64,000 nt of DNA from an uncultured Methylomonas sp. (GTDB taxonomy: Bacteria > Pseudomonadota > Gammaproteobacteria > Methylococcales > Methylomonadaceae). Under the pieces are notes generated by a model. That model was not told where the DNA came from. It did no database searches and worked only from the letters and a program-made list of their open reading frames with translations. The stretch lies in contig CAKZJE010000117.1 of assembly GCA_936941155.1 (NCBI GenBank), positions 1 to 64,000 on the forward strand. Direction: 5' to 3'. This document shows positions 6,886 through 47,401 of this stretch, piece after piece. Each line of letters starts with the position of its first letter. Position 1 is the first letter of the stretch. A program made the translations under genes and the position numbers.

Positions 6886-8274
6886 CTATTTTTTCTTGTT
6901 TTTTATGGCGTGGCTAGCCAAATTTTTCCCTAAATCCCAAATTGAACCCGGAACTTGGTGTGTATCAGCAATCACTTTATCAAACGAATCAATAATATAA
7001 TCGCGGTCTTTTTCAGATAGATTTAACGGCGGCAACAATTTCACCACGTTCATGCCGTGTCCTGCTACTTGCGTCAAAATATGATATTCCTTGAATAATG
7101 GAATCGTCACCATTTGGCAGAATAGCCCTTTATTCGCTGCTTCCAACATCGCCCACGCTGCTTTTAAAGTTAGGCTTTTTGGCGATTGAAATTCAATCGC
7201 AATCATCATGCCTTTGCCACGCGCTTCTTTCAAAAACTCATATTTTGGAGCTAAAGCGTTAATGCCGCTGATGATTTGATTGCCAATCAACGCACTGTTT
7301 TCGACAGATTTTTCTGCCCGCATCACTTCCAAAGTCGCCAGACCTGCTGCCATCGCCATATTGTTTTTGGAAAAAGTTGAGCCATGTACTACGGCTCTGT
7401 CCATGCGATTAAATACGGTGTCCATGATTTTTGTAGTCATCGCCACGCCGCCAACCGGAACAAATCCGCCGGAGAGAGCTTTCGCCATACAAATCATATC
7501 CGGTTGCACATTCCAATGTTCGATTGCCCAAAATTTGCCCGTGCGCCCTAAACCGGTTTGCACTTCATCCGCGACAAACAATGTGCCGTATTTTTTACAC
7601 AGTTTTTCCACTTCCGGCAGATAAATATCATCCGGCACATTCACGCCTTTGCCTTGAATCGGCTCGACAATAAACGCCGCGACATCTTTGTTTTTCAGCG
7701 CGTGTTCCAAGGCTTCCAAATCATTAAACGGTACAGAACTGCAACCGGGTAACAATGAACCAAAGCCTTCGCGGAAAATTTCTTCGCCGTTTAACGACAA
7801 TGAACCCATCGTTAAACCGTGATAACCGTGTTCGCAGAATACAATTTTGTCGCGTTTTGTGGTGTAGCGGGCAAATTTAATCGCCGCTTCCACCGCTTCG
7901 GTGCCGGAATTGCAGAAAAACATTTTGTCTAAATTTTCTGGCGTGGTTTTCAAAATTTCTTTCGCCAATAAGCCGCTGAGTAAAGAAACATCCATTTGTA
8001 CCAAGTTTGGCAATTCTAAATTGAGGGTTTCTGTCAGGGCTTTTACAATCGTTGGATGATTGCGACCGACGGCGAACACGCCAAAGCCGCTGAGTAAGTC
8101 CAGATATTCGTTGCCTGCATCGTCGTACAAATATTGTCCGATGGCGCGTTTGTAAGTGCGGTCATAACCGATGGTTTGTAACACGCGCACCATTTGGTTG
8201 TTTAGGTGTTTTTCGTGCAGGGTAAATTTGTCTTCGCCGTGTTGAGAAAAAAGGTCGGCTATGCTGAATGTCAT
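6886..8274 (-). CDS. hpnO: class-III PLP aminotransferase, probable HpnO (aminobacteriohopanetriol synthesis)
   Basis: The 462-residue protein is a fold-type I class-III aminotransferase. It shows the CNSGTEAVEAAIK phosphate-binding segment (121-133), the FVADEVQTG motif with D236 for the PLP ring nitrogen, and the Schiff-base lysine K265 in MAKALSGGF. Related enzymes include ornithine and acetylornithine aminotransferases. The long N-terminal region before the PLP core, and the neighbourhood of hpnG, shc, squalene synthase and hpnH, make HpnO the best call. HpnO transaminates the hopanoid side chain to give 35-aminobacteriohopanetriol. The specificity is inferred from context; an ornithine-type enzyme cannot be excluded. 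The gene is transcribed leftward into a shared terminator and is separated from hpnG by a Uma2 gene and a Septu-like pair. Confidence 0.7.
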   Translation of the reverse strand: MTFSIADLFSQHGEDKFTLHEKHLNNQMVRVLQTIGYDRTYKRAIGQYLYDDAGNEYLDLLSGFGVFAVGRNHPTIVKALTETLNLELPNLVQMDVSLLSGLLAKEILKTTPENLDKMFFCNSGTEAVEAAIKFARYTTKRDKIVFCEHGYHGLTMGSLSLNGEEIFREGFGSLLPGCSSVPFNDLEALEHALKNKDVAAFIVEPIQGKGVNVPDDIYLPEVEKLCKKYGTLFVADEVQTGLGRTGKFWAIEHWNVQPDMICMAKALSGGFVPVGGVAMTTKIMDTVFNRMDRAVVHGSTFSKNNMAMAAGLATLEVMRAEKSVENSALIGNQIISGINALAPKYEFLKEARGKGMMIAIEFQSPKSLTLKAAWAMLEAANKGLFCQMVTIPLFKEYHILTQVAGHGMNVVKLLPPLNLSEKDRDYIIDSFDKVIADTHQVPGSIWDLGKNLASHAIKNKKK

Positions 8275-8370
8275 TAGGATTACCTCAGGTTAAATAATAA
8301 AAATGAATTTTTTGTCACACGATAAATTCATTTTAAAGTTTTGTTGTCTGGTTTGTGGCGATTTACAGAG

Positions 8371-9054
8371 CTAAATTTGACCGCCTGCTCTATGGATGGG
8401 TTGCATGCTTGCATCGAAACAGGCTTGGCTTGTGCCTTTGAATTCTTGAATTAGTAGATAACGCATGTTTATATCATCAGCAAAGACGGTCATCCAAACT
8501 GACCAGAAACCTTTTGCTTTTGCGAGTCGAATAATGGTGTTTTTCATTTCTTCGCTGGAATTACTCTTAAAATCTTCTTTAACGCTTAAAGCATCATCCC
8601 ACGCTTCGTTACGCTCTTTCCAGCGTCTATCTTTTTTGCTAAGTTTTGGATGTAATGGTTCACGATCAATACCTGTTAATTCCAGTGTATTTTTAGCTAT
8701 TTGTTGTTGAAAATCAGTTAAAGAGGTTGATATTTGCGGAGCGCGGTTTTGTTCATAGTAAAAAGCACGAAAAGGATTATCACTATCTGCCCAAAAATAA
8801 TTGTTTAGATTGTTGTCATCAATATTTTTATCTTTTTTAACACTATTGCAAGAATTACAAGCTAATAGAAAATTATCCCATGCTAATTCCAAGCCGTTAG
8901 GTAAACTTTTTGGTTGAATATGTTCAACGGCAGGGGTTGGAATACGCATTTCACAATAAGAACAATACGCGCCTAATTGGTTAATTAAATCATCTCTTGC
9001 ATCACCATACTCTTTAAAGAGTTTAAGATTAACGCCGCGTTCTATCGGTCTCAT
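8371..9054 (-). CDS. ptuB: HNH endonuclease, PtuB-like (Septu-type defence)
   Basis: This 227-residue protein has an N-terminal zinc-stabilised HNH fold: C31-S-Y-C34, the catalytic-type VEHIQPKS (H45), then W59DNFLLACNSCN with C66 and C69. This is the arrangement of the HNH family found with retrons and in Septu systems. Its start overlaps the stop of the upstream ATPase gene by 4 bases (ATGA), so the two are translationally coupled. In Septu, the ATPase PtuA and nuclease PtuB together give phage defence, with PtuB as the effector. Function here is inferred from pairing and motifs. The C-terminal 130 residues have no motif I recognise. Confidence 0.72.
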   Translation of the reverse strand: MRPIERGVNLKLFKEYGDARDDLINQLGAYCSYCEMRIPTPAVEHIQPKSLPNGLELAWDNFLLACNSCNSVKKDKNIDDNNLNNYFWADSDNPFRAFYYEQNRAPQISTSLTDFQQQIAKNTLELTGIDREPLHPKLSKKDRRWKERNEAWDDALSVKEDFKSNSSEEMKNTIIRLAKAKGFWSVWMTVFADDINMRYLLIQEFKGTSQACFDASMQPIHRAGGQI

Positions 9055-10355
9055 TTTTCATTATTCTCTTCGACAGCCAAACGCTTTATTTTTAAAAATG
9101 CTTGATAAGCGGGGTCGTCACTGTAAGGAAATAACAACTCATCCAAACGTTGTTTTAACCGCTGTTTTTCTTCTTCACTAGCAGGCGGAATTTGTTTTAA
9201 CACACCATAATATTCTTTGGCAGCTTGTTCCATTGCTAAAAATCGGCGACTTTGTGCTGCAATTGGATAACCTTGTAAATCTTCAACTATGTCTTCTGGG
9301 CTTTTGCTAGTAATTTCTAACGGTTGATTTTTTTCTAAATCCCATAATAAACAATCTTTTTTCTGATAAATCGATTGAATAATAAATGGTGAATGGGTGC
9401 TGGCAACAAATTGCACTTTCGGGAAAGTATTTAATAAACGTTCAACGACAATCCCTTGCCATTTAGGATGCAGATGCAAATCTATTTCATCAATTAAAAC
9501 GATGCCTTCGGTTTGTTTGATGACATCTTTTTCTAATTGTGGATTTAACGTTGCCATGCGATAAGCAATATCGGCAACCATGCCTATCATATTGCGGTAG
9601 CCATCGCTTAATAAATGAAACGGCATAGCAAGTAATTCTTCTCGAATAATTATTTCAACAACTAACTCATCTAAATCCATATCCCAGAAAGCTTTTTTAG
9701 CATCAGGAATCATATCAACAATAGCTTCACGCACAGCCTCTAATACATGGCGGCGTTCTTGTTTTTGCAAAGCGGCTAATTCTTGAGTTTTAAACCAACG
9801 AAATAAACGCTCCAAACTAAATGCGGTATTTAAACAGTCTTCATAGCCAAGTAAACGTGAACCAGGGGGTAATGTCTCAACATCAGAAGACGTTTTTTTC
9901 CATAATCTATCAGTCCCATAATAAACAATAACAGGAAAAAAAATACTTGGGTTAGATTTTTCCTTAATTAATTGATTTGTTAATTGAAAGAAAGCATTGT
10001 TATGAATCAGTCCGTGAGGATTTTGTGCATATTTAAATCTAGCCCATTGGATTTCTGTATTGTTGACAATACCTTTTGCCATAATCCCTGCTTGTTTACT
10101 CCTTTCTTTAATTGGTGATTGCCCCATGATTTGAAAATCACACAACACATCATCATAAGAAAAACTGTATTTTTCATTAGCTTTAATTTCAGGAATTTTT
10201 AATAGAAAACTTCCTGTAGCAATCACAATAGCATCCAAAATAGCAGTTTTACCACTACCATTATCTCCAATAAGCAAAGTAAAACGTTTGGCAAGTTCTA
10301 ACTCGTAGAATTCAAAACAACGAAAGTTACGAAGCTCTAATTTATTTATTTTCAC
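9051..10355 (-). CDS. ptuA: AAA/ABC-type ATPase, PtuA-like (Septu-type defence)
   Basis: This is a 434-residue RecF/SMC-like ATPase. Walker A is GDNGSGKT (30-37) right after the LRNFRCF strand typical of these proteins. The signature-like segment is LSDGYRNMIGM. Walker B is VLIDEIDLHLHP, followed by the H-loop ASTHSPFI. The start is a GTG with an AAAAGGA ribosome site that overlaps the stop of the preceding Uma2 gene, so all three genes are probably cotranscribed. Coupled to an HNH nuclease gene, it matches the two-gene Septu layout. OLD-family or other ATPase/nuclease pairs are alternatives, but the HNH partner favours Septu. It sits between hpnG and hpnO. Confidence 0.75.
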   Translation of the reverse strand: MKINKLELRNFRCFEFYELELAKRFTLLIGDNGSGKTAILDAIVIATGSFLLKIPEIKANEKYSFSYDDVLCDFQIMGQSPIKERSKQAGIMAKGIVNNTEIQWARFKYAQNPHGLIHNNAFFQLTNQLIKEKSNPSIFFPVIVYYGTDRLWKKTSSDVETLPPGSRLLGYEDCLNTAFSLERLFRWFKTQELAALQKQERRHVLEAVREAIVDMIPDAKKAFWDMDLDELVVEIIIREELLAMPFHLLSDGYRNMIGMVADIAYRMATLNPQLEKDVIKQTEGIVLIDEIDLHLHPKWQGIVVERLLNTFPKVQFVASTHSPFIIQSIYQKKDCLLWDLEKNQPLEITSKSPEDIVEDLQGYPIAAQSRRFLAMEQAAKEYYGVLKQIPPASEEEKQRLKQRLDELLFPYSDDPAYQAFLKIKRLAVEENNEK

Positions 10356-10366
10356 AACAATTCCTT

Positions 10367-10936
10367 TTAATAATCAAACAACCCACTCCAATCCACATTC
10401 ACCGAATCAACTAACAACGGCTGAATGCTCTCACCTGCTTTTGGGCGCAAATGCAAACGGTAATAATCACTTTCCGGCTGTTGATAAATATCCAAACGTT
10501 GCTCTTTCAGATTAAACAACCACACTTCTGGAATTTGATGACTGGCATAGTGAGGTAATTTAATCGTCCGGTCATAATGCAATGAAGAATCAGCCACTTC
10601 GATAAGTAACAATACATCCTCAGCCGTTGGCAAAGATTGCATATAATCATCAGAACGCGGTTTTAAAATCGCAATATCCGGCTGTGGTTCAGATAGCTCA
10701 CTCAAATAAATGGGATTTTGTACGGTGACAATCGCTTGTTCGCCCAGTTTATTGATGAGTAACCGACTTAAACGAGTGACAAGTCCTGCGTGAAAACTAC
10801 CTATCGGTGGCATATCAAAAATTTCTCCGTTAATGAGTTCGATGTGCTGATCTTCAGTAAAAATGCCCGCTTCTGCCATGCGGTGATAATCATGGACGCT
10901 CAGTAAATGATGAGAAATTGCAAGTTGTGCTGACAT
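10367..10936 (-). CDS. Uma2 family (PD-(D/E)XK) nuclease-like protein, copy 1
   Basis: Uma2 proteins are restriction-endonuclease-fold proteins of unknown physiological role, strongly expanded in cyanobacteria and some gammaproteobacteria. Here the family core is visible: HYRMAEAGIFTEDQHIELINGEI near the N terminus, PQPDIAIL, VLLLIEVADSS with the catalytic-type glutamate, and the HYASHQIPEVWLFN C-terminal segment. The 189-residue length is typical. It lies 14 bases after hpnG and 11 bases before the PtuA-like gene, all on one strand, so it may belong to either cassette. It is one of four Uma2 genes in the window. Confidence 0.85.
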   Translation of the reverse strand: MSAQLAISHHLLSVHDYHRMAEAGIFTEDQHIELINGEIFDMPPIGSFHAGLVTRLSRLLINKLGEQAIVTVQNPIYLSELSEPQPDIAILKPRSDDYMQSLPTAEDVLLLIEVADSSLHYDRTIKLPHYASHQIPEVWLFNLKEQRLDIYQQPESDYYRLHLRPKAGESIQPLLVDSVNVDWSGLFDY

Positions 10937-11655: not shown

Positions 11656-12246
11656 TTAACTCATGGCAGAAGGTGATAAATCAACCCGATCGTAAATATC
11701 GCTTAACGCTAAAGTTAGATCAGGATTTGTTAATTTTAAAGTCGCTTCGATTTGATTGAGTTCGGTCAATAACCATTCAAACGGCGCAATTTTTTTAAAA
11801 TGCTCCACCTGAATATTGTCTTGATTAATCAAAATATAATGCTGCAAACTTTCTAAGGTTCGATATTGTTGAAATTTATCGCCGCGATCATAATCTTTGG
11901 TTGAATTGGATAAAACCTCAATAATCACCAACGGGTTTAAAAGAATATCTTTGCGATTTTCATAATACTGCGGCTGTCCTTCAATAATCATCACATCGGG
12001 ATATTTAAAACTATTGCATTGCGGAATCCATAATTTAACGTCCGCCATATAAACACGGTAATTTTGTTTTTTTAATGCACTATTTAATTCAACATAAACA
12101 TTTCCTGAAATTTGATTATGATTAATTGAGCCGCCTGCCATAGTGAAAATTTCTCCGTTGCAATATTCGCTTCTTTCCTTTGCTGCATCTTCAAGCAGCA
12201 AATAGTCTTCTACGCTGAGATAGTGAATGTTTGATTTTGGTTGCAT
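11656..12246 (-). CDS. Uma2 family nuclease-like protein, copy 2
   Basis: This is a 196-residue Uma2 protein. Family features seen are the N-terminal YLSVEDYLLLEDAAKERSE, the YCNGEIFTMAGGS segment, FKYPDVMIIEG, PLVIIEVLSNST with the catalytic-type glutamate, and LQHYILINQD. It is followed 3 bases later by hpnG and preceded by the shc terminator, so it probably heads the transcript that carries hpnG. It is clearly a different subgroup from copy 1, with a longer N terminus and the EVLSNST motif, so it is not a recent tandem duplicate. Confidence 0.87.
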   Translation of the reverse strand: MQPKSNIHYLSVEDYLLLEDAAKERSEYCNGEIFTMAGGSINHNQISGNVYVELNSALKKQNYRVYMADVKLWIPQCNSFKYPDVMIIEGQPQYYENRKDILLNPLVIIEVLSNSTKDYDRGDKFQQYRTLESLQHYILINQDNIQVEHFKKIAPFEWLLTELNQIEATLKLTNPDLTLALSDIYDRVDLSPSAMS

Positions 12247-25869: not shown

Positions 25870-26957
25870 ACAACTGCTCCAGTCTGTAACGCAGCAACCA
25901 CTGCATCACCCATTTGTGAAGTGCTGACTTTAGTCATGCCTTCGGAAAAAATATCGGCGGTACGCACATTGGCATCCAACGCACTATTCACAGCAGCTTC
26001 AATCCGCTCTGCTGCTTCGGTTAAATTAAAGGTATAACGTAACATCATGGCAGCGGAAAGAATTGTTGCTATTGGATTAGCAATTCCCTTGCCAGCAATA
26101 TCCGGCGCAGAACCATGAATCGGTTCATACATGCCTTTGCCATTTGCATCCAGTGACGCAGAAGGCAGCATCCCAATCGAACCCGTCAGCATTGCCGCAG
26201 CATCCGATAACACATCACCAAATAAATTTGAAGTGACCATCACATCAAACTGTTTTGGCGCGCGCACTAATTGCATGGCGGCGTTATCAACATACATGTG
26301 CGATAGCTGAACATCAGGATATTCTTTATTGAGGTCGGTCATTACTTCACGCCACAATTCAGTGCATTCCAAAACATTGGCTTTATCCACTGAGCAGAGT
26401 TTTTTATTACGTTTTTGCGCAATTTTAAAAGCCGAACGTCCGATACGACGAATTTCTGACTCGCTATAAACGGCGGTGTTAAAGCCTTGCCGCTCGCCGT
26501 TTTCTAAAATCCGAATTCCGCGTGGCTGACCAAAATAAATCCCGCCGGTTAATTCGCGCACAATCATTAAATCTAAACCAGAAACCAATTCAGGTTTTAA
26601 ACTGGAAGCATCGGCTAATTGTGGATATAAAATCGCTGGACGCAAATTGGAAAACAATCCCAAAACCGAACGCAATCCTAATAAGCCTTTTTCTGGGCGC
26701 ACGGAAATATCCAATGATTCCCATTTTTTGCCACCGACTGCGCCGAGTAAAATCGCGTCCGCGCTTTTCACTAAATCAATGGTTTGTTGTGGAAACGGGG
26801 TTTCATACACATCATAAGCCGCGCCGCCGATGAGTCCGTTTTCAAATTCCAAACCTAAATTCATTTGGCTATTCAAAACGTTTAAAACTTTAATCGCTTC
26901 CGCCATTATTTCAGGGCCGATACCGTCGCCTGCTAATACTGCAATTTTTTTTGTCAT
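25866..26957 (-). CDS. leuB: 3-isopropylmalate dehydrogenase
   Basis: LeuB oxidises and decarboxylates 3-isopropylmalate to 2-oxoisocaproate with NAD+, the third step of leucine synthesis. Motifs: [13 protein letters not shown] at the N terminus, [10 protein letters not shown], the substrate-binding [10 protein letters not shown], the metal-binding [17 protein letters not shown], and the NAD-binding [14 protein letters not shown]. At 363 residues it is of normal length. It is coupled to asd. Its upstream flank holds a leftover leuD 3' end 26 bases away, showing that leuD once abutted leuB directly. Confidence 0.97.
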
Positions 26958-26983
26958 TTATTCAAAACCTTCTATTTAAAATC

Positions 26984-27037
26984 TTATGCCGCAAACAACC
27001 AAGGCGCACGTTTTGTCCGTTCGGTTCTGCTTTAACT
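26984..27037 (-). pseudogene. leuD: remnant of a second leuD 3' end
   Basis: Read on the minus strand, this stretch encodes TERTKRAPWLFAA followed by TAA. It aligns with the C terminus of the intact leuD product, [12 protein letters not shown]. The DNA shares blocks such as AACCAAGG and GCACGTTTTG with 27998-28018, and several differences are synonymous (GCA/GCG for Ala, TTA/TTG for Leu). Homology fades at about 27037, six bases before the end of the putative toxin gene. The fragment ends 26 bases before leuB. It looks like the original leuD end, displaced when new DNA carrying a leuD end plus the Panacea pair arrived. Confidence 0.8.
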
Positions 27038-27042
27038 ACCAA

Positions 27043-27477
27043 TTATGTATGTTTCTTTAATGATGGAGATACTCTGTGTTCTGGGTCATACCAAAACAGT
27101 TTTGCTATATTTCCATGTTTGATAGCAATAAATCTTGGTTTTCCTCCTAAATGAAACGAAAACAAGTTTTCTGCCTCATCATCTAAAGCTAATTCTGTGA
27201 GTCTATCTATAGCTTCTTTGGATAACCTGCCCGTATCCGACAATGAATGATGCTGTTTTCCAGTAATTTCATTCCAACTCATGCTGTCAAAATCATGTAA
27301 TTTGCTGATTATAGTCAGTTCTTCATTTTGACCTTTAGGCCATTTAAATATACCGCCTTTATCCGTTGTAGAAAAACGCCAAACAGGTTTGTCATCTGTT
27401 GTTTTTTCTACAGTTCTTACCGTTTTTGTGTCAGGTTTATTGACTGCACTTTTAGCTACTTTCTTATTTTTACTCAT
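27043..27477 (-). CDS. putative toxin partner of a Panacea (DUF4065) antitoxin
   Basis: This 144-residue protein has a basic, lysine-rich N terminus (to about residue 30) and then a compact domain with WRFSTTDKGGIFKWP, FDSMSWNEITGKQHH and a C-terminal FWYDPEHRVSPSLKKHT. I do not recognise a named toxin fold, but the pattern is a conserved one. It overlaps the upstream DUF4065 gene by 4 bases. In Panacea systems the DUF4065 protein neutralises many unrelated toxins encoded next to it, so this is the likely toxin. The order antitoxin then toxin fits. It is inserted between leuD and leuB. Confidence 0.6.
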   Translation of the reverse strand: MSKNKKVAKSAVNKPDTKTVRTVEKTTDDKPVWRFSTTDKGGIFKWPKGQNEELTIISKLHDFDSMSWNEITGKQHHSLSDTGRLSKEAIDRLTELALDDEAENLFSFHLGGKPRFIAIKHGNIAKLFWYDPEHRVSPSLKKHT

Positions 27478-27917
27478 GTTAATGAACTATAATATTCCAT
27501 CATAGAATTAAGCGTTATTTCATTAAAACCTCGTTCTAAATCACCTAAACCTTTTCTTGCCTCTATCCAAGGAGCTTCTGAATGAGTCTGATCGCTTAAC
27601 CATTGTGCTGATTTATCTCCATAAGCTTTTAATACAACTTCAATTGTCTCTTTTTGGTCTTTGTTTAGTTTGCCTTTAGCAAATTCAGCAAAATTGTCTG
27701 CTTGAACTTGGAATTGACCTCTATGTTTATCATATAAATCCCTACAAACAGGACCATTTGACCAAGCTTCAATTTGGCTATTAAAAATAGGCTTGTCATC
27801 CCATACTAATGACCAGGCTTGACAGTAATAAACAAGTTTTTGCAGTTTCATTGCTGACATTGTGCCTTTTTTATCAAGTATATATGTAGCCACATCAAAA
27901 ACATTTACGTTATTCAT
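27474..27917 (-). CDS. panA: Panacea-domain (DUF4065, GepA/SocA-like) antitoxin
   Basis: The 147-residue protein shows the DUF4065 pattern: DVATYILDKKGTMSAMKLQKLVYY near the start, WSLVWDDKPIFNSQIEAW, then NGPVCRDLY, and a C-terminal LSDQTHSEAPWIEARKG. Panacea proteins act as antitoxins or proteolytic adaptors and pair with diverse toxins. The frame is open to 27950, but I chose the ATG at 27917, which is preceded by AAGGAG at a good distance. It overlaps the downstream toxin-like gene by 4 bases. It lies 72 bases beyond the leuD stop, co-directional with the leucine genes. Confidence 0.8.
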   Translation of the reverse strand: MNNVNVFDVATYILDKKGTMSAMKLQKLVYYCQAWSLVWDDKPIFNSQIEAWSNGPVCRDLYDKHRGQFQVQADNFAEFAKGKLNKDQKETIEVVLKAYGDKSAQWLSDQTHSEAPWIEARKGLGDLERGFNEITLNSMMEYYSSLT

Positions 27918-27989
27918 AATCATCTCCTTTTTAGCAACTCTTCTAAACAAAAAAGCAAATCGTCTGAAATATAGTGCGGTTATGATTCA

Positions 27990-28622
27990 TTAAACAAATA
28001 ACCAAGGTGCACGTTTTGCTCGCTCAGTTTCATACGCTTTAATTGTATCGGCTTCTTGCAAAGTTAAGGCAATATCATCTAAGCCGTTTAATAAACGATG
28101 TTTTCTATTGGCATCTATCGCAAACGCTATCGCTAAACCGTCTGGTGTAGTGATGGTTTGCGCGGCTAAATCAATCGTCAATTGATAACCATCAGCGATT
28201 TGTTTGAACAGCGAATCAACTACATCAGCACTTAATACAATTGGCAATAAGCCATTTTTGAAACAGTTATTGTAGAAAATATCGGCAAAACTCGGTGCAA
28301 TAATCGCTCGGAAGCCATAATCTTCTAAAGCCCAAGGCGCGTGTTCGCGTGAAGAGCCACAGCCAAAATTTTCGCGGGTTAATAAAATTTCCGCACCTTT
28401 ATATTGTGCTTGATTCAAGACGAAATCTTTGTTTAACGGGCGATTCGTGCAATCCATTTCCGGTTCGCCGCGATCTAAATAACGCCATTCGTCAAATAAA
28501 AATACGCCAAATCCAACGCGACGAATGGATTTTAAAAATTGTTTGGGAATAATGGCATCGGTATCAACGTTGGCTCTGTCTAAAGGCACAACTTTTGAGG
28601 TTAAGGTAGTAAAAGCTCGCAT
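27990..28622 (-). CDS. leuD: 3-isopropylmalate dehydratase small subunit
   Basis: LeuD forms the swivelling domain of isopropylmalate isomerase with LeuC. Motifs are [22 protein letters not shown] at the N terminus, [30 protein letters not shown] and [17 protein letters not shown]. It has 210 residues. Leucine operons normally run leuC-leuD-leuB with tight spacing. Here leuD is cut off from leuC by a DUF4365 cassette and from leuB by a Panacea pair, so it may need its own promoter; a TTGACA lies upstream at about 28669-28674, without a well-spaced -10. A second leuD 3' end survives near leuB. Confidence 0.96.
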
Positions 28623-28733
28623 TTTATTTATATTAAAAAATAGTGGTTTTATAGATTTACAATTTCTGTCAATTAAAGACTGTTTTTATATTTCAATCTC
28701 AATTTAGCTTTAAAGTTTTTATAATATGCTTAG

Positions 28734-29867
28734 CTATTCGGATACAACATGAAAGTTATCAGGATAATCAATAATAGAAGACCTACCTTCTTTTTCGATA
28801 CTTCCTTTACACTCTATAGGTAATCCATCTTTATGAGCATTAATAGCAGTATTGTAATCTTGCTCATGGAGTTTTATTTTTATTTTTCTTTTTTTACCAA
28901 AGTCATCAAAATTTAAGATAGTAATAACACCATCACCTTCTTGTTTTTCCCTGTGTAAAGCAATAATATAACCTTCTGCAAAGAAATCTTCTGGGTTTCT
29001 TTCGTAAAACTTATTTGATGCCTCTTTAATATAAGGCATCATGTTACTATCAAATAATAAATGTGTTTTTGTTGAAGGTTTATTAATCAATTCATTATAA
29101 AACCATGAAACATTTATTTCTGTTTGTTGGTAGCCTTGTTCATTTAATTCACCTGTAACAGCATCACATAGCAAAGCACTCACACCTTGAGAAACTACCT
29201 CTTCAAAAGATTCGAAGTAAAAGCGACCTCTTTTTATAGTTTCATTTGCAACATAATGTAGAGCATCAAGAGCCTCTAACATAGTAATGATAGATTGTCT
29301 TTCAAAGGGGTCTATATCAATTTGCTTTTGTTTTATTGCAATTGGTGAAATAACTTTTGTAATAAAACTTCCTCTTTCTGTTTGTCCTAATCTTAATGTT
29401 TTACTATATTCAGCTACTTGGCTATATTTTCTAGCTGGAAATAGAGCTTTTTTCTCAACAGTAGCACAAGCCCCCGCAATTACTAAACTTTTTGCTCTTT
29501 GAATTACAGATACTCCATATTCAAAAGGCAAAGAACTAGAGGTTTTATTCATCGGGTCAAATGTTCTTACCCTTATAACATCGCCAAGTGTCAATGTATC
29601 AATATCTTCGAGTAACTCTAATTGAGAACGACTTTCAGCAATAGCTAATGTTTTTATTGTTCTACTCATTGCATGAGAAAAATCACCTAAATTATAATCT
29701 TCTGGCAACCATATTCTGTATTTTTGTCCTTCTGCATTTAATTCCCAAATTGAAAATGTTTTATCAACTTGCTTAGCGCATTTCCAATCTTTAGATAGTA
29801 AATAACTTCGCAAATCTTTAGGAGATAAGGCATTGAATATTTTATCGTCAGTAATTTCAACTTTCAT
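28734..29867 (-). CDS. uncharacterised protein coupled to a DUF4365 protein (candidate defence gene)
   Basis: I do not recognise a named family for this 377-residue soluble protein. Its N-terminal 80 residues look like a small alpha/beta domain (DWKCAKQVDKTFSIWELN, then KYRIWLPEDY). An I-x-x-L-A-x-x-E-x-R-S segment follows, with LLEDIDTLTLGDVIRVR. The middle is helical (LEALDALHYVANETIKRG), and the C terminus has beta-rich KKRKIKIKL. No nuclease or ATPase signature is evident. It overlaps the DUF4365 gene by 4 bases. The segment is visibly more AT-rich than leuC, suggesting acquisition. A recognition or regulatory partner of the nuclease-like protein is plausible but unproven. Confidence 0.6.
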   Translation of the reverse strand: MKVEITDDKIFNALSPKDLRSYLLSKDWKCAKQVDKTFSIWELNAEGQKYRIWLPEDYNLGDFSHAMSRTIKTLAIAESRSQLELLEDIDTLTLGDVIRVRTFDPMNKTSSSLPFEYGVSVIQRAKSLVIAGACATVEKKALFPARKYSQVAEYSKTLRLGQTERGSFITKVISPIAIKQKQIDIDPFERQSIITMLEALDALHYVANETIKRGRFYFESFEEVVSQGVSALLCDAVTGELNEQGYQQTEINVSWFYNELINKPSTKTHLLFDSNMMPYIKEASNKFYERNPEDFFAEGYIIALHREKQEGDGVITILNFDDFGKKRKIKIKLHEQDYNTAINAHKDGLPIECKGSIEKEGRSSIIDYPDNFHVVSE

Positions 29868-30373
29868 AATTCCTCCCCGTTTGCTAGTTTATTCATTAAG
29901 TTTCTAAGCGTTTCAATCGTTATTATTTGTGAGGTAGGTATCTTTATTGAAACAGTTGTAGTATTTGAAGTATCCGGCATTCCTTTTAAAGACACCCAAT
30001 AAGCAAGATGATTTAGAGTAATTGAATTTTCATTCTGTTGTATCCAGTGTTCGCAATTTTCAGGAGTATGTACAACAATCAATATCCTAGGATTCATGCA
30101 ATGTCTGCGTAAATCATTATAGTTTTTTAAAGATAAAGGATAAGTCAGATATTCGCCATCTGGATGATGTGCATATGTGCATTTTAATTGAACTCTTAAA
30201 CTTTCAAAGAGAGGGAATGTCTTATCATCCCCTCGTTGCATAATTGAACAATCAACACTATCTTCATCTAGTCTTATTTCTTCTAATGAATATCCTGCCA
30301 CAGTAGAAATTGCATGAACATAAGCAATACTAAACTGTTGTTGCAAGCTCGTTTTTGAGAAATGAAAACTCAT
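29864..30373 (-). CDS. DUF4365 protein, predicted PD-(D/E)XK-like nuclease
   Basis: The 169-residue protein matches the DUF4365 pattern: FSIAYVHAISTVAGYSLEE with an early acidic residue, then DEDSVDCSI, then LRVQLKCTY. The D followed by Q-x-K is the layout of a restriction-endonuclease-like active site, with Gln in place of the usual Glu. YPLSLKNYNDLR, PRILIVVHTPENCEHW and HLAYWVSLKGMP complete the family look. It precedes and overlaps the 377-residue gene. Both sit between leuC and leuD on the operon strand, 32 bases after leuC. Catalysis is inferred from fold only. Confidence 0.68.
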   Translation of the reverse strand: MSFHFSKTSLQQQFSIAYVHAISTVAGYSLEEIRLDEDSVDCSIMQRGDDKTFPLFESLRVQLKCTYAHHPDGEYLTYPLSLKNYNDLRRHCMNPRILIVVHTPENCEHWIQQNENSITLNHLAYWVSLKGMPDTSNTTTVSIKIPTSQIITIETLRNLMNKLANGEEL

Positions 30374-30405
30374 TAGTTATCCTAAGTTTATGCTACTCTG
30401 TAATT

Positions 30406-31809
30406 CTATATGCTTCTTGCATCCACAAACCGCCCCGCAATCGCCGCTGCTGCTGCCATAGCCGGACTGACTAAATGTGTACGACCACCATAACCTTGCC
30501 GCCCTTCAAAATTGCGATTAGAAGTCGAAGCACAACGTTCACCGACTTCCAGCCTATCAGCATTCATTGCCAAGCACATGGAACAACCCGGATCGCGCCA
30601 TTCAAATCCTGCTTCGATAAAAATTTTATCCAAACCTTCTTGTTCGGCTTGCAACTTCACTAAACCAGAACCCGGCACAATTAACACTTGTTTCACATTT
30701 GCCGCTTTGGTTTTGCCTTTCGCCACTTCTGCTGCCGCGCGTAAATCTTCAATCCGCGAATTGGTACAAGAGCCGATAAACACTTTGTCAATCGCAATAT
30801 CGGTAATCGCTTGCCCAGCTTCTAAGCCCATATATTCCAAAGCACGAACCATGCTGTCACGTTTAATGCTATCGCTTTCATCAGCAGGGTTGGGTACATA
30901 GCCATCAACCGCAACGACTAATTCAGGCGAAGTTCCCCAAGTGACTTGCGGTTTAATATCCGCAGCATCCAACTCAACCACTTTATCGAACTTGGCATCA
31001 GCATCAGAATGCAGTTTTTGCCATGCACGTTCTGCCATAAACCAATGTTCACCATTTGGAGAAAAAGGACGGTCTCGGTAATAATCAATAGTCACATCAT
31101 CAACCGCAATCAAACCAGTCCGCGCTCCGGCTTCAATCGCCATATTGCAAACAGTCATCCGTCCTTCCATCGACAAGGCAGCAATCGCTTCGCCTGCAAA
31201 CTCAATCGCATAGCCGTTGCCGCCTGCGGTGCCGATTTTGCCAATAATCGCTAATACGATGTCTTTTGCTGTCACGCCGGCGGATACATGACCGTTGACT
31301 TTTATCAGCAAGTTTTTGGATTTTTTCTGCACCAAACATTGCGTCGCTAAAGCGTGTTCAACTTCCGATGTGCCAATGCCAAACGCTAACGCGCCGGATG
31401 CGCCATGCGTGGAAGTGTGCGAATCACCGCAAACAACGGTCATACCCGGTAAAGTTGCGCCTTGTTCGGGCCCTATGACATGCACAATCCCTTGCCGTAC
31501 GTCGCCCATATCAAATTCGGTAATGCCAAATTCTGCGCAGTTTTTATCCAAAGTTTCCACTTGCAATTTCGCAATCGGATCAGTAATCCCTTTGTCTCTA
31601 TCAATCGTCGGCACATTGTGGTCTGCCACCGCTAGATTTCGCGCTTGTCGCCAAGGTTGTCTGCCTGCTAACCGCAAACCATCAAATGCTTGCGGCGATG
31701 TCACTTCATGCACCAATTGCCGATCAATATAAATCAACGCCGAGCCATCTTCTTGGGTAGTGACAACGTGGTCTTGCCACAATTTATCGTATAAAGTTTG
31801 TCCTGCCAT
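30406..31809 (-). CDS. leuC: 3-isopropylmalate dehydratase large subunit
   Basis: LeuC is the aconitase-like catalytic subunit that isomerises 2-isopropylmalate to 3-isopropylmalate using a 4Fe-4S cluster. The cluster ligands are C348 ([13 protein letters not shown]), C409 and C412 ([11 protein letters not shown]). Other family features are DHNVPT near residue 63 and [12 protein letters not shown] near 127. The 467-residue length is standard. Its ATG overlaps the stop of the upstream Uma2 gene (TAATG), so it is probably translated from that transcript. The partner leuD is 1.8 kb downstream beyond the DUF4365 cassette. Confidence 0.97.
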
Positions 31810-32426
31810 TATATTTCCTGTTCAATTTTAACGTGAGGGTTGGCTAAAAACTGCTGCATGTCTTCATTATTGACTTGATAATACACATCCGCCACCGCAA
31901 CCGTTAAGCCTATCGAATCAAAAGTGATGTTTTCACCCTGATAATAAAAGCTTGATTGCCAACCTTCTTTTCTTCTAAAGACTTCGATTTCACAAAAATC
32001 CTGTTCAATCAACACATATTCTTCTAAAGTCGGAATATTTTGATACGACAGCCGTTTTAACATTTTGTCGCGTTGCCGTGTAGATTTTGAAAGCACTTCA
32101 ATAATTAAAACGGGTTGCGTTTTATAATAAGCATTTTCATTGTCTTTCTGACACACCACCATGACATCAGGATAAAAAGCCTTGCGATGGGTGATTTTCA
32201 CTTTCATGTCATTGATATAAGCAAAACACGGCAACTGATTTGCTCGAATATAAGTCATCAACACAAATAACAGGTTGGTGGAAATTTTATTATGATTATC
32301 ACTTGCCCCCGCCATTGCGAATAATTCGCCATCAATATATTCATGCTTGATTTCGGCATCCTGTTCTGCAAGCAGATAGTCTTCCATCGTTAACAAAGAT
32401 TTTGATTGCTCAAATTGTGCTGACAT
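31809..32426 (-). CDS. Uma2 family nuclease-like protein, copy 3
   Basis: A 205-residue Uma2 protein, with [20 protein letters not shown] at the N terminus, [38 protein letters not shown] with the catalytic-type glutamate, and [10 protein letters not shown]. It is close in layout to copy 2 (11656-12246). The stop codon shares a base with the leuC start, so leuC translation may depend on it. A 28-base palindrome separates it from adk. Role unknown. Confidence 0.88.
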
Positions 32427-32438
32427 GAAGTTTCTCCA

Positions 32439-32466
32439 GTAGAGACGTAAAATTTTACGTCTCTAC
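32439..32466. repeat. 28-bp perfect palindrome, GTAGAGACG family, copy 1
   Basis: GTAGAGACGTAAAA followed by its exact inverse TTTTACGTCTCTAC forms a perfect 28-base palindrome between the adk stop and the Uma2 start. A closely similar palindrome sits inside the CHAT gene at 60503-60530. It resembles small dispersed palindromes common in cyanobacteria and large sulfur bacteria. As RNA it would form a hairpin with an AT-rich tip. Confidence 0.8.
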
Positions 32467-32475
32467 AATCAATCG

Positions 32476-33138
<663 letters not shown>

Positions 33139-37967: not shown

Positions 37968-39053
37968 ATGACAAGCAAAGAAATAAAAAAACTTGAAGAA
38001 GATCAACAATATGAATCTGACTCTAACGATTTACCACCTTCTGATATTGTAGCTTTCAACGAATTAAGATCTTGTGCAGACCTTTTGAGACTTTATAATT
38101 CAGAACAACCTGACGGCACAAGGCAACTAGATATTCAACCTAACTTCCAGCGAGATGTTGTTTGGTCAAAGCCTGACCAAACAAGATTTATTGATAGCTT
38201 AACAAAGCAATTGCCCATCCCAAGTATGTGCATAAGTCTGGATTACAAAACAGACAAACGCTTAGTCATTGATGGTTTGCAACGAATGCAGACTATTATA
38301 AATTTCTTATCAAATGATGAATGGAAGCTTTCTGAATTAAATGATATAGATGAAAGATTGTCAGGAAAGACAGTTCATACTATCAAAACAAAATCAAAAG
38401 ATGTTTATGACCGTGTGCAAAACGTGATGATTCCTATAACGGTCATAAGATGCGATTATTCAAAACCACAACATAATGAATATCTTTTTACAATATTTCG
38501 TAGATTAAACTCTGGTGGTGTAAAACTAAATAATCAAGAAATTAGAAACTGTATTTTTAGTGGTTCTTTAAATGCTTTATTAAAAGAACTGGCTAAATCA
38601 AACGAAACAAAAAAACTCTTTGGAGTTAAAACTAGGTTTGCTAACGAGGAAATAATACTTCGTTTTTTTGCTTTTAATGAAAACTTATCTATTTATAGAG
38701 GTAGTCTCTCTAAGTTTTTAAACGATTATATGAGCGAAAATAGAAGCCTAGCACAATATAAAATTCAATCACATCAGGATTTATATTTAACAACAACTAA
38801 GATCATTTATGAAAAAATATTTGATAAGTCTTCAGCATCATCTTACGGTAAAACATTTCTTGAAGGACTGCTATATGGAGTTTCTCAAAACATTGAAAAA
38901 CTTAAAAATGAAAGTGATGATAAATTAAAAACTCTTTTTCAAAATTTTAAAAGTTTGCCTGAATATAGTGTTGAAAGCTTGAAAGAAGGTCTTTCAGCTC
39001 AAGATAAAGTTATGAAGCGTTTATCAGCATCTAAAACATGTTTTGGTCAATAA
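37968..39053 (+). CDS. DUF262 (GmrS-like N-terminal domain) protein
   Basis: The 361-residue protein has the DUF262 signature: IQPNFQRDVVW (56-66), FIDSLTKQLPIPSMCI, and LVIDGLQRMQTI, where IDGLQR (101-106) is the ParB/Srx-like nucleotide-handling motif, usually DGQQR. LFTIFRRLNSGGVKLNNQE also fits. DUF262 is the N-terminal half of the type IV restriction enzyme GmrSD, but the DUF1524 nuclease half is missing. Instead, a HEPN protein is encoded 2 bases downstream. It lies 86 bases after gyrA on the same strand and is AT-rich compared with gyrA. A defence or toxin-antitoxin role is inferred. Confidence 0.78.
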   Translation: MTSKEIKKLEEDQQYESDSNDLPPSDIVAFNELRSCADLLRLYNSEQPDGTRQLDIQPNFQRDVVWSKPDQTRFIDSLTKQLPIPSMCISLDYKTDKRLVIDGLQRMQTIINFLSNDEWKLSELNDIDERLSGKTVHTIKTKSKDVYDRVQNVMIPITVIRCDYSKPQHNEYLFTIFRRLNSGGVKLNNQEIRNCIFSGSLNALLKELAKSNETKKLFGVKTRFANEEIILRFFAFNENLSIYRGSLSKFLNDYMSENRSLAQYKIQSHQDLYLTTTKIIYEKIFDKSSASSYGKTFLEGLLYGVSQNIEKLKNESDDKLKTLFQNFKSLPEYSVESLKEGLSAQDKVMKRLSASKTCFGQ

Positions 39054-39055
39054 AT

Positions 39056-39556
39056 ATGAAACCAAAAGAGCCAATAGATGACTTATTAAAAGAGCTTCAA
39101 AAGCTTTATGATAGTGATACGAATATTAATCATCAAACTTATTATTCAAAACTTGCGTTGCTAGAATTATCTGGCTGGTTAGAAGACGTTTTAGATGAAA
39201 TAATTTTAACTTATGGACGTTCTAAATTAGCAGAACCTAAAAATATCGAAAAATTAGAAAAAGAAATAGTTAAGAAAACTTATGGTTGTGACTATAAACT
39301 ACACTTTAGAGAGATGTTAATTCAAGTGATAGGTATAACAAATGTTGAAAAGTTAGAAGATACTTTAAAAAACATGGGAAATTTTCAAACTCTTGTTGAT
39401 CAATTAAGTTCTATTTACAACGCTAGAAACTCAGCAGCGCACACATCTATTGCAGGTACAATGAAAACATATCAAGCTCCCTCATCAATGAGAACATATT
39501 TAAGATCATTACATCCTATTTTAGAAATGGTTGAAATCGAACTAAATAAAATATAG
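39056..39556 (+). CDS. HEPN-domain protein, putative ribonuclease partner of DUF262
   Basis: This 166-residue, mostly helical protein carries RNSAAH (R124-H129), the Rx4H catalytic motif of HEPN ribonucleases, within a helix SSIYNARNSAAHTS. The N-terminal helix YYSKLALLELSGWLEDVLDE resembles the RiboL-PSP/MAE_28990 type of HEPN protein often linked to restriction-like genes. The frame could start at 39038, overlapping the upstream gene; I chose the ATG at 39056, 2 bases after that gene's stop. It probably acts with the DUF262 protein, as effector or toxin. Function is inferred. Confidence 0.72.
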   Translation: MKPKEPIDDLLKELQKLYDSDTNINHQTYYSKLALLELSGWLEDVLDEIILTYGRSKLAEPKNIEKLEKEIVKKTYGCDYKLHFREMLIQVIGITNVEKLEDTLKNMGNFQTLVDQLSSIYNARNSAAHTSIAGTMKTYQAPSSMRTYLRSLHPILEMVEIELNKI

Positions 39557-44070: not shown

Positions 44071-45012
44071 ATGATTGAAGAACCCGTTAAATACATTACA
44101 AAAGTTGAAATTTCTGGTCTTTGGGGGAGATATGATATTGGGTGGAATTTACACCCTGATGTGAATGTTTTAGCGGGAATTAATGGCAGTGGGAAAACAA
44201 CCATTCTAAAACTTTTGTCATTAACATCATCTGAATTAGATTCAAAAGTAACAGGAATTCTTAAATTAACTTTTAATAATAACCAGATATTTCAACAAAC
44301 ACCAATACCAGCAACGATTCAAAAAGAAAGTATCTCCAATAGTGGCAAGCGACAAGTTTCAGTAGACTTTGCTTTTAAAATATTACTAGCCCCTTATGAA
44401 GCGACTTTTATCAACACATTCGATACTGAATTAAAACCTTCGGAAGCTGTACAGAAACTTTCTGATGACCGCGTTAAATCAGAATTAGACTGGGAGCTTT
44501 ATCAATTACAGGAAAAATATAAAGACTATCAAATAAATATTGCAAGAAAAAAAGAAACAGTATTTAAGGATAATAGAGGTAATCCTTTTTATGATAATGT
44601 CGTTATAGAATTTAGAAGGCTTAGTTATCCACAAGAAAGGCTTTTAGAAATTATTGATGAGTTATTTTTAGAAACAGGAAAAAAAGTTAATCGTGATAAA
44701 AATGAACTAGAGTTTTTATTAGGCGATAAAGAAATTAACGCTTATCAATTATCATCTGGTGAAAAACAGCTTTTAGTTATTTTATTAACAGTTTTAGTTC
44801 AAGATAATAAACCAGCTATTTTATTAATGGATGAGCCGGAAATATCTTTGCATATTGAATGGCAGCGCAAATTGATTAAATATGTTCGTGAATTAAATCC
44901 AAATGTACAACTGATTATTGCTACGCATTCACCAGATATTATTATCAAAGGTTGGCTTGATAAAGTCGCTAATATCGAAGATATTATTGTTAAGGATAAC
45001 GCAGTAGCATGA
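44071..45012 (+). CDS. ariA: AAA ATPase, AriA-like (PARIS-type defence)
   Basis: A 313-residue ABC/AAA_15-type ATPase with VEISGLWGRYDIGW, Walker A GINGSGKT (36-43), the signature YQLSSGEKQLLVILL, Walker B ILLMDEPEISLHIEWQ and the H-loop IIATHSPDIII. It overlaps the downstream DUF4435 gene by 4 bases. An ATPase coupled to a DUF4435/TOPRIM-like protein is the layout of PARIS, where AriA senses phage anti-restriction proteins and releases the AriB nuclease. The start codon is 1 base after the hisC stop, so it probably rides on the host operon. No target region for a trigger protein can be judged by eye. Confidence 0.75.
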   Translation: MIEEPVKYITKVEISGLWGRYDIGWNLHPDVNVLAGINGSGKTTILKLLSLTSSELDSKVTGILKLTFNNNQIFQQTPIPATIQKESISNSGKRQVSVDFAFKILLAPYEATFINTFDTELKPSEAVQKLSDDRVKSELDWELYQLQEKYKDYQINIARKKETVFKDNRGNPFYDNVVIEFRRLSYPQERLLEIIDELFLETGKKVNRDKNELEFLLGDKEINAYQLSSGEKQLLVILLTVLVQDNKPAILLMDEPEISLHIEWQRKLIKYVRELNPNVQLIIATHSPDIIIKGWLDKVANIEDIIVKDNAVA

Positions 45013-46025
45013 CAAAACATCCTTTTTCACAATATATTTCCTCTGAACGAGAAGAAGGCATTGCTACACTTTCGGCTAAAAAAAATCCTACAAAGGTATT
45101 TGTTTATGTAGAAGATATTACCGATGTCGGCTTTTGGTATGGTATTTTAAGTCCTTATGAAAAATCAAATAATATTAAGTTTGATATTTCGCCTCCTTAT
45201 TCAGAAAATAATCTCACAACTGGAAAAGACCAGTTAATAAAATTATTTCCAAATACAGATAAATATTTCATTATTTGCTTAGATAGCGATTATGATTATC
45301 TTTTACAATCAGAGCTTGCTCAGACAGTTAAAAACAATCCTTATATTTTCCAAACTTATGCTTATGCAGTGGAAAATTTAAAATGCTATGCAGAAAGTCT
45401 GAATTCCCTTTGCGTCAAAGCCACAAACAATACAGACGAAATCGTTGATTTGTCTTATTTATTACTTGAATACTCTAAAATTATCTATCCTTTGCTAGTT
45501 TGGAATCTATATTATTACGCTGAAAAAAACCATGCGCATTTTTCAATCAGTGACTTTTGCAAAATTGTTACATTAGATTCGCTTACAACTGTTAATTACG
45601 CATCAGAATTAACCAGTTTAAAATCTTCGGTTGACTCTAAATTAAGCACTTTCCCTGTTAATGTAACTTTGGAAAATTTTACTAGCCAACTAAATAATCT
45701 AGGTTTAAATGAAACGAATTCGTATTTATTTATGAATGGTCATGCGCTTTATGATTTTATGGCAAAGTTTCTGATAAAAATTTGTGATACATTAAAAGCT
45801 AGTTATATTTCTGAAATTGAAAAAATAGCAAAAACTGATGAAGAATTGCGTAATAAGAAAGGTCATTACTACAATGCAATAAAAGCAACGCCAATTACTT
45901 TTCTTTTGGCAAATAATGAAAAATTTACTGACTGCTTTATCTTCAAAGAAAAAATAAAAAAAGATATTGAAAGTTATTTAGCCACTTTTAAACATAAACA
46001 ACTAACTCAGGGAATGAATTCATAA
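45009..46025 (+). CDS. ariB: DUF4435 TOPRIM-like effector, AriB-like (PARIS-type defence)
   Basis: The 338-residue protein carries TOPRIM-like acidic residues: E35 in VFVYVEDITDVGFW, and D92/D94 in IICLDSDYDYL. This matches DUF4435, the effector family of PARIS, where AriB cleaves host tRNA once freed by AriA. The C-terminal 200 residues are mainly helical. It overlaps ariA by 4 bases at the start and tyrA by 1 base at the stop (TAATG). So it is threaded into the aromatic operon without a gap. The trigger and the RNA target are unknown here. Confidence 0.75.
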   Translation: MTKHPFSQYISSEREEGIATLSAKKNPTKVFVYVEDITDVGFWYGILSPYEKSNNIKFDISPPYSENNLTTGKDQLIKLFPNTDKYFIICLDSDYDYLLQSELAQTVKNNPYIFQTYAYAVENLKCYAESLNSLCVKATNNTDEIVDLSYLLLEYSKIIYPLLVWNLYYYAEKNHAHFSISDFCKIVTLDSLTTVNYASELTSLKSSVDSKLSTFPVNVTLENFTSQLNNLGLNETNSYLFMNGHALYDFMAKFLIKICDTLKASYISEIEKIAKTDEELRNKKGHYYNAIKATPITFLLANNEKFTDCFIFKEKIKKDIESYLATFKHKQLTQGMNS

Positions 46026-46906: not shown

Positions 46907-46942
46907 TTATTTTCAAAATAATTGTACGCGGGAGTTTATAAA

Positions 46943-47401
46943 ATGCTTGAAAATACTCAATTTGAAGAAAATCAGGATAAAAAAATGCCTTCATTAAATC
47001 ACAGTTTTATTTGTGCCGAATTGATGCGGCAATTTTTGCAGGATGAAACATTACAGCCCTTGCCTGAATTAACGTTAGATATTGAAAATGGCTTAACGCC
47101 GGATATTTGCGTTTATAAAAAAGAAAATGTGCATCCAAATTTTTTTGAAGATACATTGAAAATGAAAGAACTGCCGTTATTAGCGGTTGAGGTTATTTCT
47201 TCAAGTCAAAATATTGCTTCAATGTTGGATAAAGCGAGTCTTTTATTAAAGGCTGGAATTGAAAATATATGGACTGTTGAACCGTATAGTCATAGCGTTT
47301 TCGTGGTCAATAAAACAGGAAAAAAATTATTCCACGAAGCGATTGTTGAATCCGATGGCATTAAAATGGATTTTAATAAAGTCTTTTCCAGTCTGCGTTA
47401 G
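46943..47401 (+). CDS. Uma2-like nuclease family protein, copy 4 (short form)
   Basis: The 152-residue protein has the Uma2 core in short form: SLNHSFICAELMRQFLQDE, GLTPDICVYKKE and LLAVEVISSSQNI with the catalytic-type glutamate, then IENIWTVEPYSHSVFVV. It lacks the N-terminal VEDYLLLE extension of copies 2 and 3. I chose the ATG at 46943, with GGGAG upstream, over a TTG at 46922. It is inserted between tyrA and aroA. Confidence 0.8.
   Translation: MLENTQFEENQDKKMPSLNHSFICAELMRQFLQDETLQPLPELTLDIENGLTPDICVYKKENVHPNFFEDTLKMKELPLLAVEVISSSQNIASMLDKASLLLKAGIENIWTVEPYSHSVFVVNKTGKKLFHEAIVESDGIKMDFNKVFSSLR

What the first reader, a model, noticed from the sequence alone, without database searches (positions are those of the whole stretch)
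28734..30373. DUF4365 nuclease-like protein coupled to an uncharacterised 377-residue protein between leuC and leuD: candidate undescribed defence system
Seen: two AT-rich genes overlapping by 4 bases; the first has a D...QxK restriction-fold layout, the second has no recognisable catalytic motif but a well-formed N-terminal domain with an LAxxExRS..DVIRVR segment. They break a leuC-leuD order that is normally tight. Inference: the second protein may recognise or gate the target and the DUF4365 protein may cut. I know of no described system with this composition.
Basis: partly seen in the sequence, partly recalled or inferred. Interest (0 to 1): 0.7.

Follow-up and report, generated by a model that had tools for sequence, protein, structure and literature searches.

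The report
Two-gene phage-defence candidate inside leucine operon
Two overlapping genes wedged between two leucine-synthesis genes are a member of an already catalogued but untested phage-defence candidate, a DNA-cutting enzyme plus an unknown partner; the surprise is that this bacterium, and unrelated ones, slot such systems into the middle of everyday gene clusters.

Summary
In detail: two AT-rich minus-strand genes with a 4-base overlap sit between leuC and leuD. The system is not undescribed. Both proteins match the two halves of PADLOC's candidate system PDC-M02 over full length (E 1.5e-56 and 5.9e-93). No paper in the searched library names it.

New here: (1) The first protein is a stand-alone DUF4365 nuclease; its model matches the DREN nuclease domain of SPARDA (Z 13.3), with D41/Q62/K64 conserved. 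(2) The partner ends in an SSB-like OB-fold; residues 1-289 have no assigned fold. (3) Of 65 partner genes, 60 have the nuclease gene just upstream, 57 with the same 4-base overlap; the two families' distances correlate (r 0.85). (4) Pairs sit in core-operon junctions: leuC|leuD in two branches of the tree, murC|murB, cysS|cimA, sufS|sufU, pqqB|pqqC. (5) A same-genus genome carries PD-T4-2, an experimentally tested system, at the same leuC|leuD junction. The window also holds PD-T4-2, PARIS and Septu among core genes.

Most likely the partner senses infection and licenses the nuclease. Context supports defence; the gating mechanism is inference. No experiment or complex prediction was available.

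The parts
29864..30373 (-). M02A: stand-alone DUF4365 / DREN-type PD-(D/E)XK nuclease, 169 aa
   Evidence: Pfam DUF4365 E 1e-23, 84.4 bits over cut-off 24.3; PADLOC PDC-M02A E 1.5e-56; AF2 pLDDT 91.5; SPARDA DREN Z 13.3
28734..29867 (-). M02B: 377-aa partner, predicted sensor/gate
   Evidence: PADLOC PDC-M02B E 5.9e-93, residues 1-376; no Pfam family above cut-off; AF2 pLDDT 90.8
29864..29867 (-). ATGA stop/start overlap (translational coupling)
   Evidence: sequence; a 4-base NTGA overlap in 57 of 60 pairs
30182..30190 (-). Q62-x-K64 motif of M02A
   Evidence: Q 56/57, K 56/57; a Q62A/K64A double mutant served as the inactive enzyme in a DUF4365-APAZ protein (PMC10810196, passages)
30251..30268 (-). 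D36 and D41 of M02A (acidic motif)
   Evidence: D36 56/57, D41 57/57
29367..29393 (-). RLGQTERGS motif of M02B (residues 159-167)
   Evidence: T163, G166, S167 57/57; E164 55/57; function unknown
28737..29000 (-). C-terminal OB-fold of M02B (residues 290-377)
   Evidence: Foldseek and VIA-align matches to SSB/PriB OB-folds, Z 8.4-10.0 in the listed rows
30406..31809 (-). leuC, upstream operon gene
   Evidence: relatives' matches
27990..28622 (-). leuD, downstream operon gene
   Evidence: relatives' matches

Best explanation
The pair is a member of candidate defence system PDC-M02. M02A is a DREN-type (DUF4365) effector nuclease with no targeting domain of its own. M02B is co-translated with it, binds it, and keeps it idle until M02B meets an infection signal, probably phage nucleic acid contacted through its C-terminal OB-fold. 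M02A then degrades DNA (possibly RNA too) with little sequence specificity, clearing the phage or stopping the infected cell. In outline this is what the short-Argonaute half does for the DREN half of SPARDA. Shown here: family membership, fold and active-site residues of M02A, OB-fold of M02B, gene coupling, correlated divergence, defence-type setting. Inferred: complex formation, trigger, gating, outcome. Promoter-like sites in the region are no more frequent than in shuffles, so the pair is most simply read from the leu operon (inference).
For: PDC-M02A/B full-length matches. M02A model: top PDB hits are SPARDA DREN chains, Foldseek E 1.7e-5, Z 13.3 over 138 residues. D41 57/57, Q62 and K64 56/57. 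A DUF4365-APAZ protein with its Argonaute degrades DNA nonspecifically once the guide finds target (PMC10810196, passages). OB-fold at 290-377. 60 of 65 partner genes linked, 57 of 60 by a 4-base overlap; Mantel r 0.85, 0 of 2000 permutations. PD-T4-2 at the same leuC|leuD junction in a same-genus genome, E 1.9e-142 and 8.5e-52; deleting PD-T4-2 raised T4 plaquing (PMC9519451, one passage). PARIS, PD-T4-2 and Septu in the same window. A restriction gene within 103 bases of the pair in 6 of 38 genome-contig loci. Pair also on plasmids and in a prophage, where both genes match my two profiles.
Against: No phage test of any PDC-M02 pair was found. Five of 65 M02B genes have no DUF4365 gene in front: L002 (inside a type I R-M operon), L040, L059 (IS fragment upstream), L063 (at a record end) and a duplicate in L031; so M02B can stand without M02A. 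An OB-fold is common and does not prove ssDNA binding. The near-versus-far neighbourhood comparison was modest and not a clean test. DUF4365 also occurs without M02B: 4 of 7 class genomes, M02B sought there with one PADLOC model. In 101 relatives M02B is rare (6 genomes, this one included).
Confidence: 0.6

Rival explanations
1. Restriction-like system: M02B recognises a sequence or a modified base in incoming DNA and M02A cuts there, without killing the cell (type IV-like).
For: Weak sequence similarity of the M02A profile to EcoRV (E 0.032); pairs beside hsdS or hsdR (L021, L033, L052, L058) and M02B alone between hsdS and hsdR (L103).
Against: No methyltransferase travels with the pair in the window; the closest structural matches are the SPARDA DREN domains, with restriction enzymes lower (DpnI Z 5.9, EcoRV Z 3.8). 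No base-recognition fold was identified in M02B, but residues 1-289 are barely tested.
Confidence: 0.2
2. Plain toxin-antitoxin or addiction module: M02A is the toxin, M02B the antitoxin, kept for its own sake on mobile DNA.
For: Tight two-gene overlap; plasmid and prophage carriage; M02A ORF in pieces while M02B is open in L030 and L047.
Against: M02B is large (about 380 aa) and conserved along its length; both halves are broken in L054, and M02B alone is broken or short in L050 and L067, so decay does not always spare the supposed antitoxin; M02B persists without M02A in L002 and L040.
Confidence: 0.17
3. The pair serves leucine synthesis or its regulation.
For: It lies between leuC and leuD in the window and in an alphaproteobacterial MAG (L023).
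Against: 89 of 92 genomes have no insert above 300 bases there; other pairs lie in murC|murB, cysS|cimA, sufS|sufU and pqqB|pqqC, or in R-M operons.
Confidence: 0.03

Closest known systems
PDC-M02 (PADLOC-DB 2.0.0 candidate system)
   Same: Both genes match over full length, same pairing.
   Different: Nothing found that separates it; no published test found in the searches made.
SPARDA (short prokaryotic Argonaute with DREN/DUF4365-APAZ)
   Same: Same effector nuclease fold and QxK residues; two-gene effector-plus-sensor layout.
   Different: No Argonaute and no APAZ part: M02A is the nuclease alone, and no Argonaute family is among the 18 Pfam families that any of 41 M02B proteins matched at E <= 1.
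PD-T4-2
   Same: Two-gene defence unit sitting at the same leuC|leuD junction in a same-genus genome.
   Different: Different families: GmrSD_N above its cut-off, and a HEPN_RiboL-PSP match below its cut-off.
Type I restriction-modification operons
   Same: Some M02 pairs and a solitary M02B are embedded in them.
   Different: M02A and M02B match no Hsd family, and in the 38 genome-contig loci only 4 have a type I gene directly beside them by family search.

Membership tests
PDC-M02 | Gene A matching PDC-M02A profiles over full length | tested here: met
   E 1.5e-56, residues 7-168, profile 3-164 of 165
PDC-M02 | Gene B matching PDC-M02B profiles over full length | tested here: met
   E 5.9e-93, residues 1-376, profile 1-375 of 380
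PDC-M02 | A and B adjacent | tested here: met
   4-base overlap
PDC-M02 | Protects against phage | not testable with these tools
   No paper naming PDC-M02 in the library; validation pending for most PDCs (PMC12988326, passages)
DUF4365 / DREN nuclease | Pfam PF14280 above gathering score | tested here: met
   84.4 bits against 24.3
DUF4365 / DREN nuclease | PD-(D/E)XK-type fold with D and QxK residues | tested here: met
   Z 13.3, rmsd 3.4, 138 aligned to 9qbq_C; D41 57/57, Q62 56/57, K64 56/57
SPARDA | APAZ domain fused to the DREN domain | tested here: not met
   The 169-aa protein is filled by the nuclease domain (model residues 6-166 aligned)
SPARDA | Short Argonaute gene beside it | tested here: not met
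   Neighbours are leuC, M02B, leuD; no Argonaute family among the Pfam matches of M02B homologues
Type II toxin-antitoxin | M02A toxic alone, neutralised by M02B | not testable with these tools
   needs expression

The most novel reading that the evidence does not exclude
Defence systems, M02 among them, use core operons as their home: single systems enter tight junctions between essential or metabolic genes, are read with those genes, and so form a dispersed immune repertoire with no island. In this 64-kb window Septu, PARIS, PD-T4-2 and M02 all sit among core genes, PARIS one base after hisC and overlapping tyrA by one base; leuC|leuD has been entered by M02 in two branches of the tree and by PD-T4-2 or an AbiL-like ATPase in relatives. 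That the systems are there is shown; that co-expression or protection from loss selects for it is the novel claim, and no control for accessory genes in general was run.
Probability: 0.3. Interest if true: 0.75.

Novelty: new member of a known kind. Interest (0 to 1): 0.55.

Why it matters
It ties a catalogued but untested candidate to a known effector nuclease fold, names the residues to mutate, and gives diverse pairs to test. More broadly, if defence systems habitually enter core operons, searches restricted to defence islands miss them, and the leuC|leuD, hisC|tyrA and gyrA|serC junctions become places to look for new ones.

Tried and rejected
Metabolic role for the pair: rejected (no insert above 300 bases in 89 of 92 genomes; 9 of the 101 searched genomes were not counted because the two genes were not both found on one contig, among them G036 and G058 of G010's genus). 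SPARDA membership: rejected (no Argonaute or APAZ). Alternative upstream effectors for M02B: the 110-aa ORF before M02B in L059 reads by eye like part of an IS6-type transposase; L063 starts 189 bases from the record's end and cannot be judged; L031's second copy is a near-identical duplicate without its own nuclease gene. Only L002 and L040 remain as clear cases of M02B without DUF4365. L040's upstream fragment looks like HsdS by eye but had no Pfam match.

Near-versus-far comparison of neighbours (make-up checked). Near set: 241 proteins counted, a random 150 printed, 98 of those used plus two added by hand after I had seen them (HsdR of L021, leuD of L023); the 52 left out were viral and plasmid loci and seven others from GTDB loci. 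Far set: 89 of 101. The answers list only the first 25 of 102 and 95 families. Near: ResIII 4, Methylase_S 3, HSDR_N 2 (one of them hand-added), N6_Mtase 2, DEAD 2; far: DEAD 2, ResIII 2, N6_Mtase 1, BrxL_ATPase 1. Not a clean test; I rest nothing on it. No control was run for how often other accessory gene pairs enter core operons, so 'M02 prefers operons' is not shown.

Fold of M02B residues 1-289: not found. A sequence search of the PDB with the M02B profile gave nothing at E <= 1. Pfam matches of single M02B proteins at E <= 1 were scattered (best 0.0045); none was used.

Literature, judged from listings except where a passage is cited: PDC-M02 (0 papers), other PDC names (13 papers), DUF4365 (10 papers), phage defence candidate with PADLOC (4 papers), DREN with OB-fold (88 papers, 15 listed), leuC/leuD with phage defence (6 papers), defence in housekeeping operons (0 and 4 papers). 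None of the listed titles and abstract openings reports a test of this pair or this junction. bioRxiv and most subscription papers are not held.

Full report
WHAT IS THERE. The minus-strand genes 29864-30373 (169 aa, M02A) and 28734-29867 (377 aa, M02B) overlap by ATGA and lie 32 bases after leuC and 111 bases before leuD. G+C is 30-33% against 43-50% over leuC. Promoter-like and terminator-like sites in 26900-32600 are no more frequent than in shuffles (16 against 17.5; 3 against 3.9).

IDENTITY. M02A is DUF4365 (E 1e-23). PADLOC assigns M02A to PDC-M02A (1.5e-56) and M02B to PDC-M02B (5.9e-93), both full length. This is therefore a catalogued candidate system, not an undescribed composition. 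'PDC-M02' occurs in 0 papers of the library; [quoted passage not shown]

HOMOLOGUES. Loci came from relatives (6 of 101 genomes, this one included), a class sample (3 of 369, this one included), IMG/VR (7 loci), GTDB contigs (38 loci), and plasmids (14 records, of which I fetched 11). From these and the window I kept 65 M02B genes of at least 250 aa after dropping four duplicate loci (L001, L009, L010, L020) and shorter hits, among them L054 and L067. Of the 65, 60 have a match to my iterated M02A profile just upstream on the same strand (in L030 and L047 only as pieces of a broken frame); 57 of the 60 show a 4-base NTGA overlap, 1 a 1-base overlap, 2 neither. All were found through M02B, so the linkage is not built in. 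Over 57 pairs the distance matrices agree (Mantel r 0.85, 0 of 2000 permutations as high), at median identities of 35% (A) and 27% (B); shared host history can also raise such a correlation. The reverse linkage is looser: 7 of 369 class genomes hold DUF4365, 3 of those M02B by one PADLOC model.

STRUCTURE. M02A: pLDDT 91.5. The best PDB matches are the DREN domains of SPARDA complexes (Foldseek E 1.7e-5; Z 13.3, rmsd 3.4, 138 aligned); the next group is Holliday-junction resolvases (Z up to 8.9). D41 is kept in 57 of 57, D36, Q62 and K64 in 56 of 57. In the DUF4365-APAZ protein of Thermocrispum a Q62A/K64A mutant served as the inactive enzyme, and the complex cleaved DNA nonspecifically after target recognition (PMC10810196, passages). 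M02B: pLDDT 90.8; residues 290-377 form an OB-fold like SSB and PriB (listed Z 8.4-10.0). Many unrelated OB-folds tie at this level, so the match says fold, not ligand. Among the most conserved stretches is RLGQTExGS at 159-167, with W28, P55 and D62 also in 57 of 57; their roles are unknown.

OPERON CONTEXT. leuC and leuD lie a median 28 bases apart in the 92 of 101 genomes where the gap could be measured. Three exceed 300 bases: this genome (1786), G001 of the same genus (2269) and G010 of the same family (5293). G001 carries PD-T4-2_A and B (1.9e-142, 8.5e-52) plus a 198-aa PD-(D/E)XK protein (6.4e-48) there; G010 carries an AbiLi/PDC-M38A-like ATPase (1.5e-54), other ORFs and a similar 198-aa protein. 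Deleting PD-T4-2 from its native strain raised T4 plaquing (PMC9519451, one passage). In an alphaproteobacterial MAG (L023) an M02 pair sits between leuC and leuD with overlaps on both sides. In a FastTree, midpoint-rooted M02B tree 38 tips lie under the common ancestor of it and the window gene (support 0.87; deeper nodes 0.63-0.84), so the two insertions look independent. Other junctions, with flanks named by NCBIfam: murC|murB (L051), cysS|cimA (L028), sufS-like|sufU (L004; L003 likewise by eye, while L005 shows only the sufS side), and pqqB|pqqC (this genome's second pair, with 136 and 214 bases of spacing). Restriction genes directly beside the pair: L021 and L033 (HsdR), L052 and L058 (HsdS), L039 (type III), L031 (Mrr), i.e. 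6 of 38 GTDB loci. In G084 an M02B without M02A lies in the order HsdM-HsdS-PIN-M02B-HsdR.

THE REST OF THE WINDOW. PADLOC also finds PARIS (AriA 7.6e-59, AriB 2.8e-42) between hisC and tyrA, PD-T4-2 (2.7e-153, 7.6e-53) between gyrA and serC, and Septu (PtuA 1.2e-121, PtuB 1.9e-78) between a hopanoid-type cluster and a class III aminotransferase gene (names of these flanking genes are mine from the translations). hisC and tyrA are adjacent in 27 of 30 loci; PARIS lies before tyrA in G000 and G010, and G001 shows neither hisC nor PARIS. Aligned gyrA ends within 192 bases of serC in 22 of 30 loci; of the other 8, one is this genome, one has a 902-base gap (G011), and in the rest gyrA was not seen, some at contig ends. 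So the genome holds several defence systems, each alone in a core-gene junction. PD-T4-2_A relatives are common here (27 of 101 genomes). That PARIS and Septu are validated systems is recalled, not from a call.

MECHANISM. Shown: fixed gene order with overlap, a nuclease fold with conserved active-site residues, an OB-fold partner, correlated divergence, and company of known systems. Inferred: binding, silence at rest, trigger and outcome. The solitary M02B copies near R-M genes suggest to me that M02B does the recognising and can lend it to other nucleases; two cases, one supported only by eye, are thin evidence.

LIMITS. No complex could be predicted, residues 1-289 of M02B remain without a fold, no control measures how often accessory genes in general enter core operons, and the near-far neighbourhood comparison is not clean (see Tried and rejected).

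Noticed in passing
window 44071-46025 (+): PARIS-like pair (AriA, AriB) one base after hisC and overlapping tyrA by one base; a homologous pair (64% and 53% identical) sits before tyrA in G010.
   Followed up: partly
window 37968-39556 (+): PD-T4-2 A and B between gyrA and serC; the same system is at leuC|leuD in G001 of the same genus.
   Followed up: partly
window 8371-10355 (-): Septu pair (PtuA, PtuB; 4-base overlap) between hopanoid-type genes and a class III aminotransferase gene.
   Followed up: partly
window 27043-27950 (-): SocA/Panacea-domain protein plus a 144-aa partner (4-base overlap) between leuD and leuB; the same-genus genome G002 has only a short gap there.
   Followed up: no
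window 31809-32426, 46922-47401, 10367-10936, 11656-12246: Four PDC-S03-like genes (the first also Pfam Uma2), each between core-type genes: before leuC, tyrA|aroA, two in the hopanoid-type cluster.
   Followed up: no
L103 (G084): M02B without M02A inside a type I R-M operon, next to a PIN-domain gene.
   Followed up: partly
L030, L047: DUF4365 ORF in pieces while the M02B frame stays open.
   Followed up: no
L107 (G462) 8225-9475: A SIR2-domain gene 13 bases downstream of an M02 pair.
   Followed up: no
L116 398-2160: A Mycobacterium abscessus prophage carries the overlapping pair as its first two genes (both match my profiles), near WXG-motif and polymorphic-toxin genes.
   Followed up: partly
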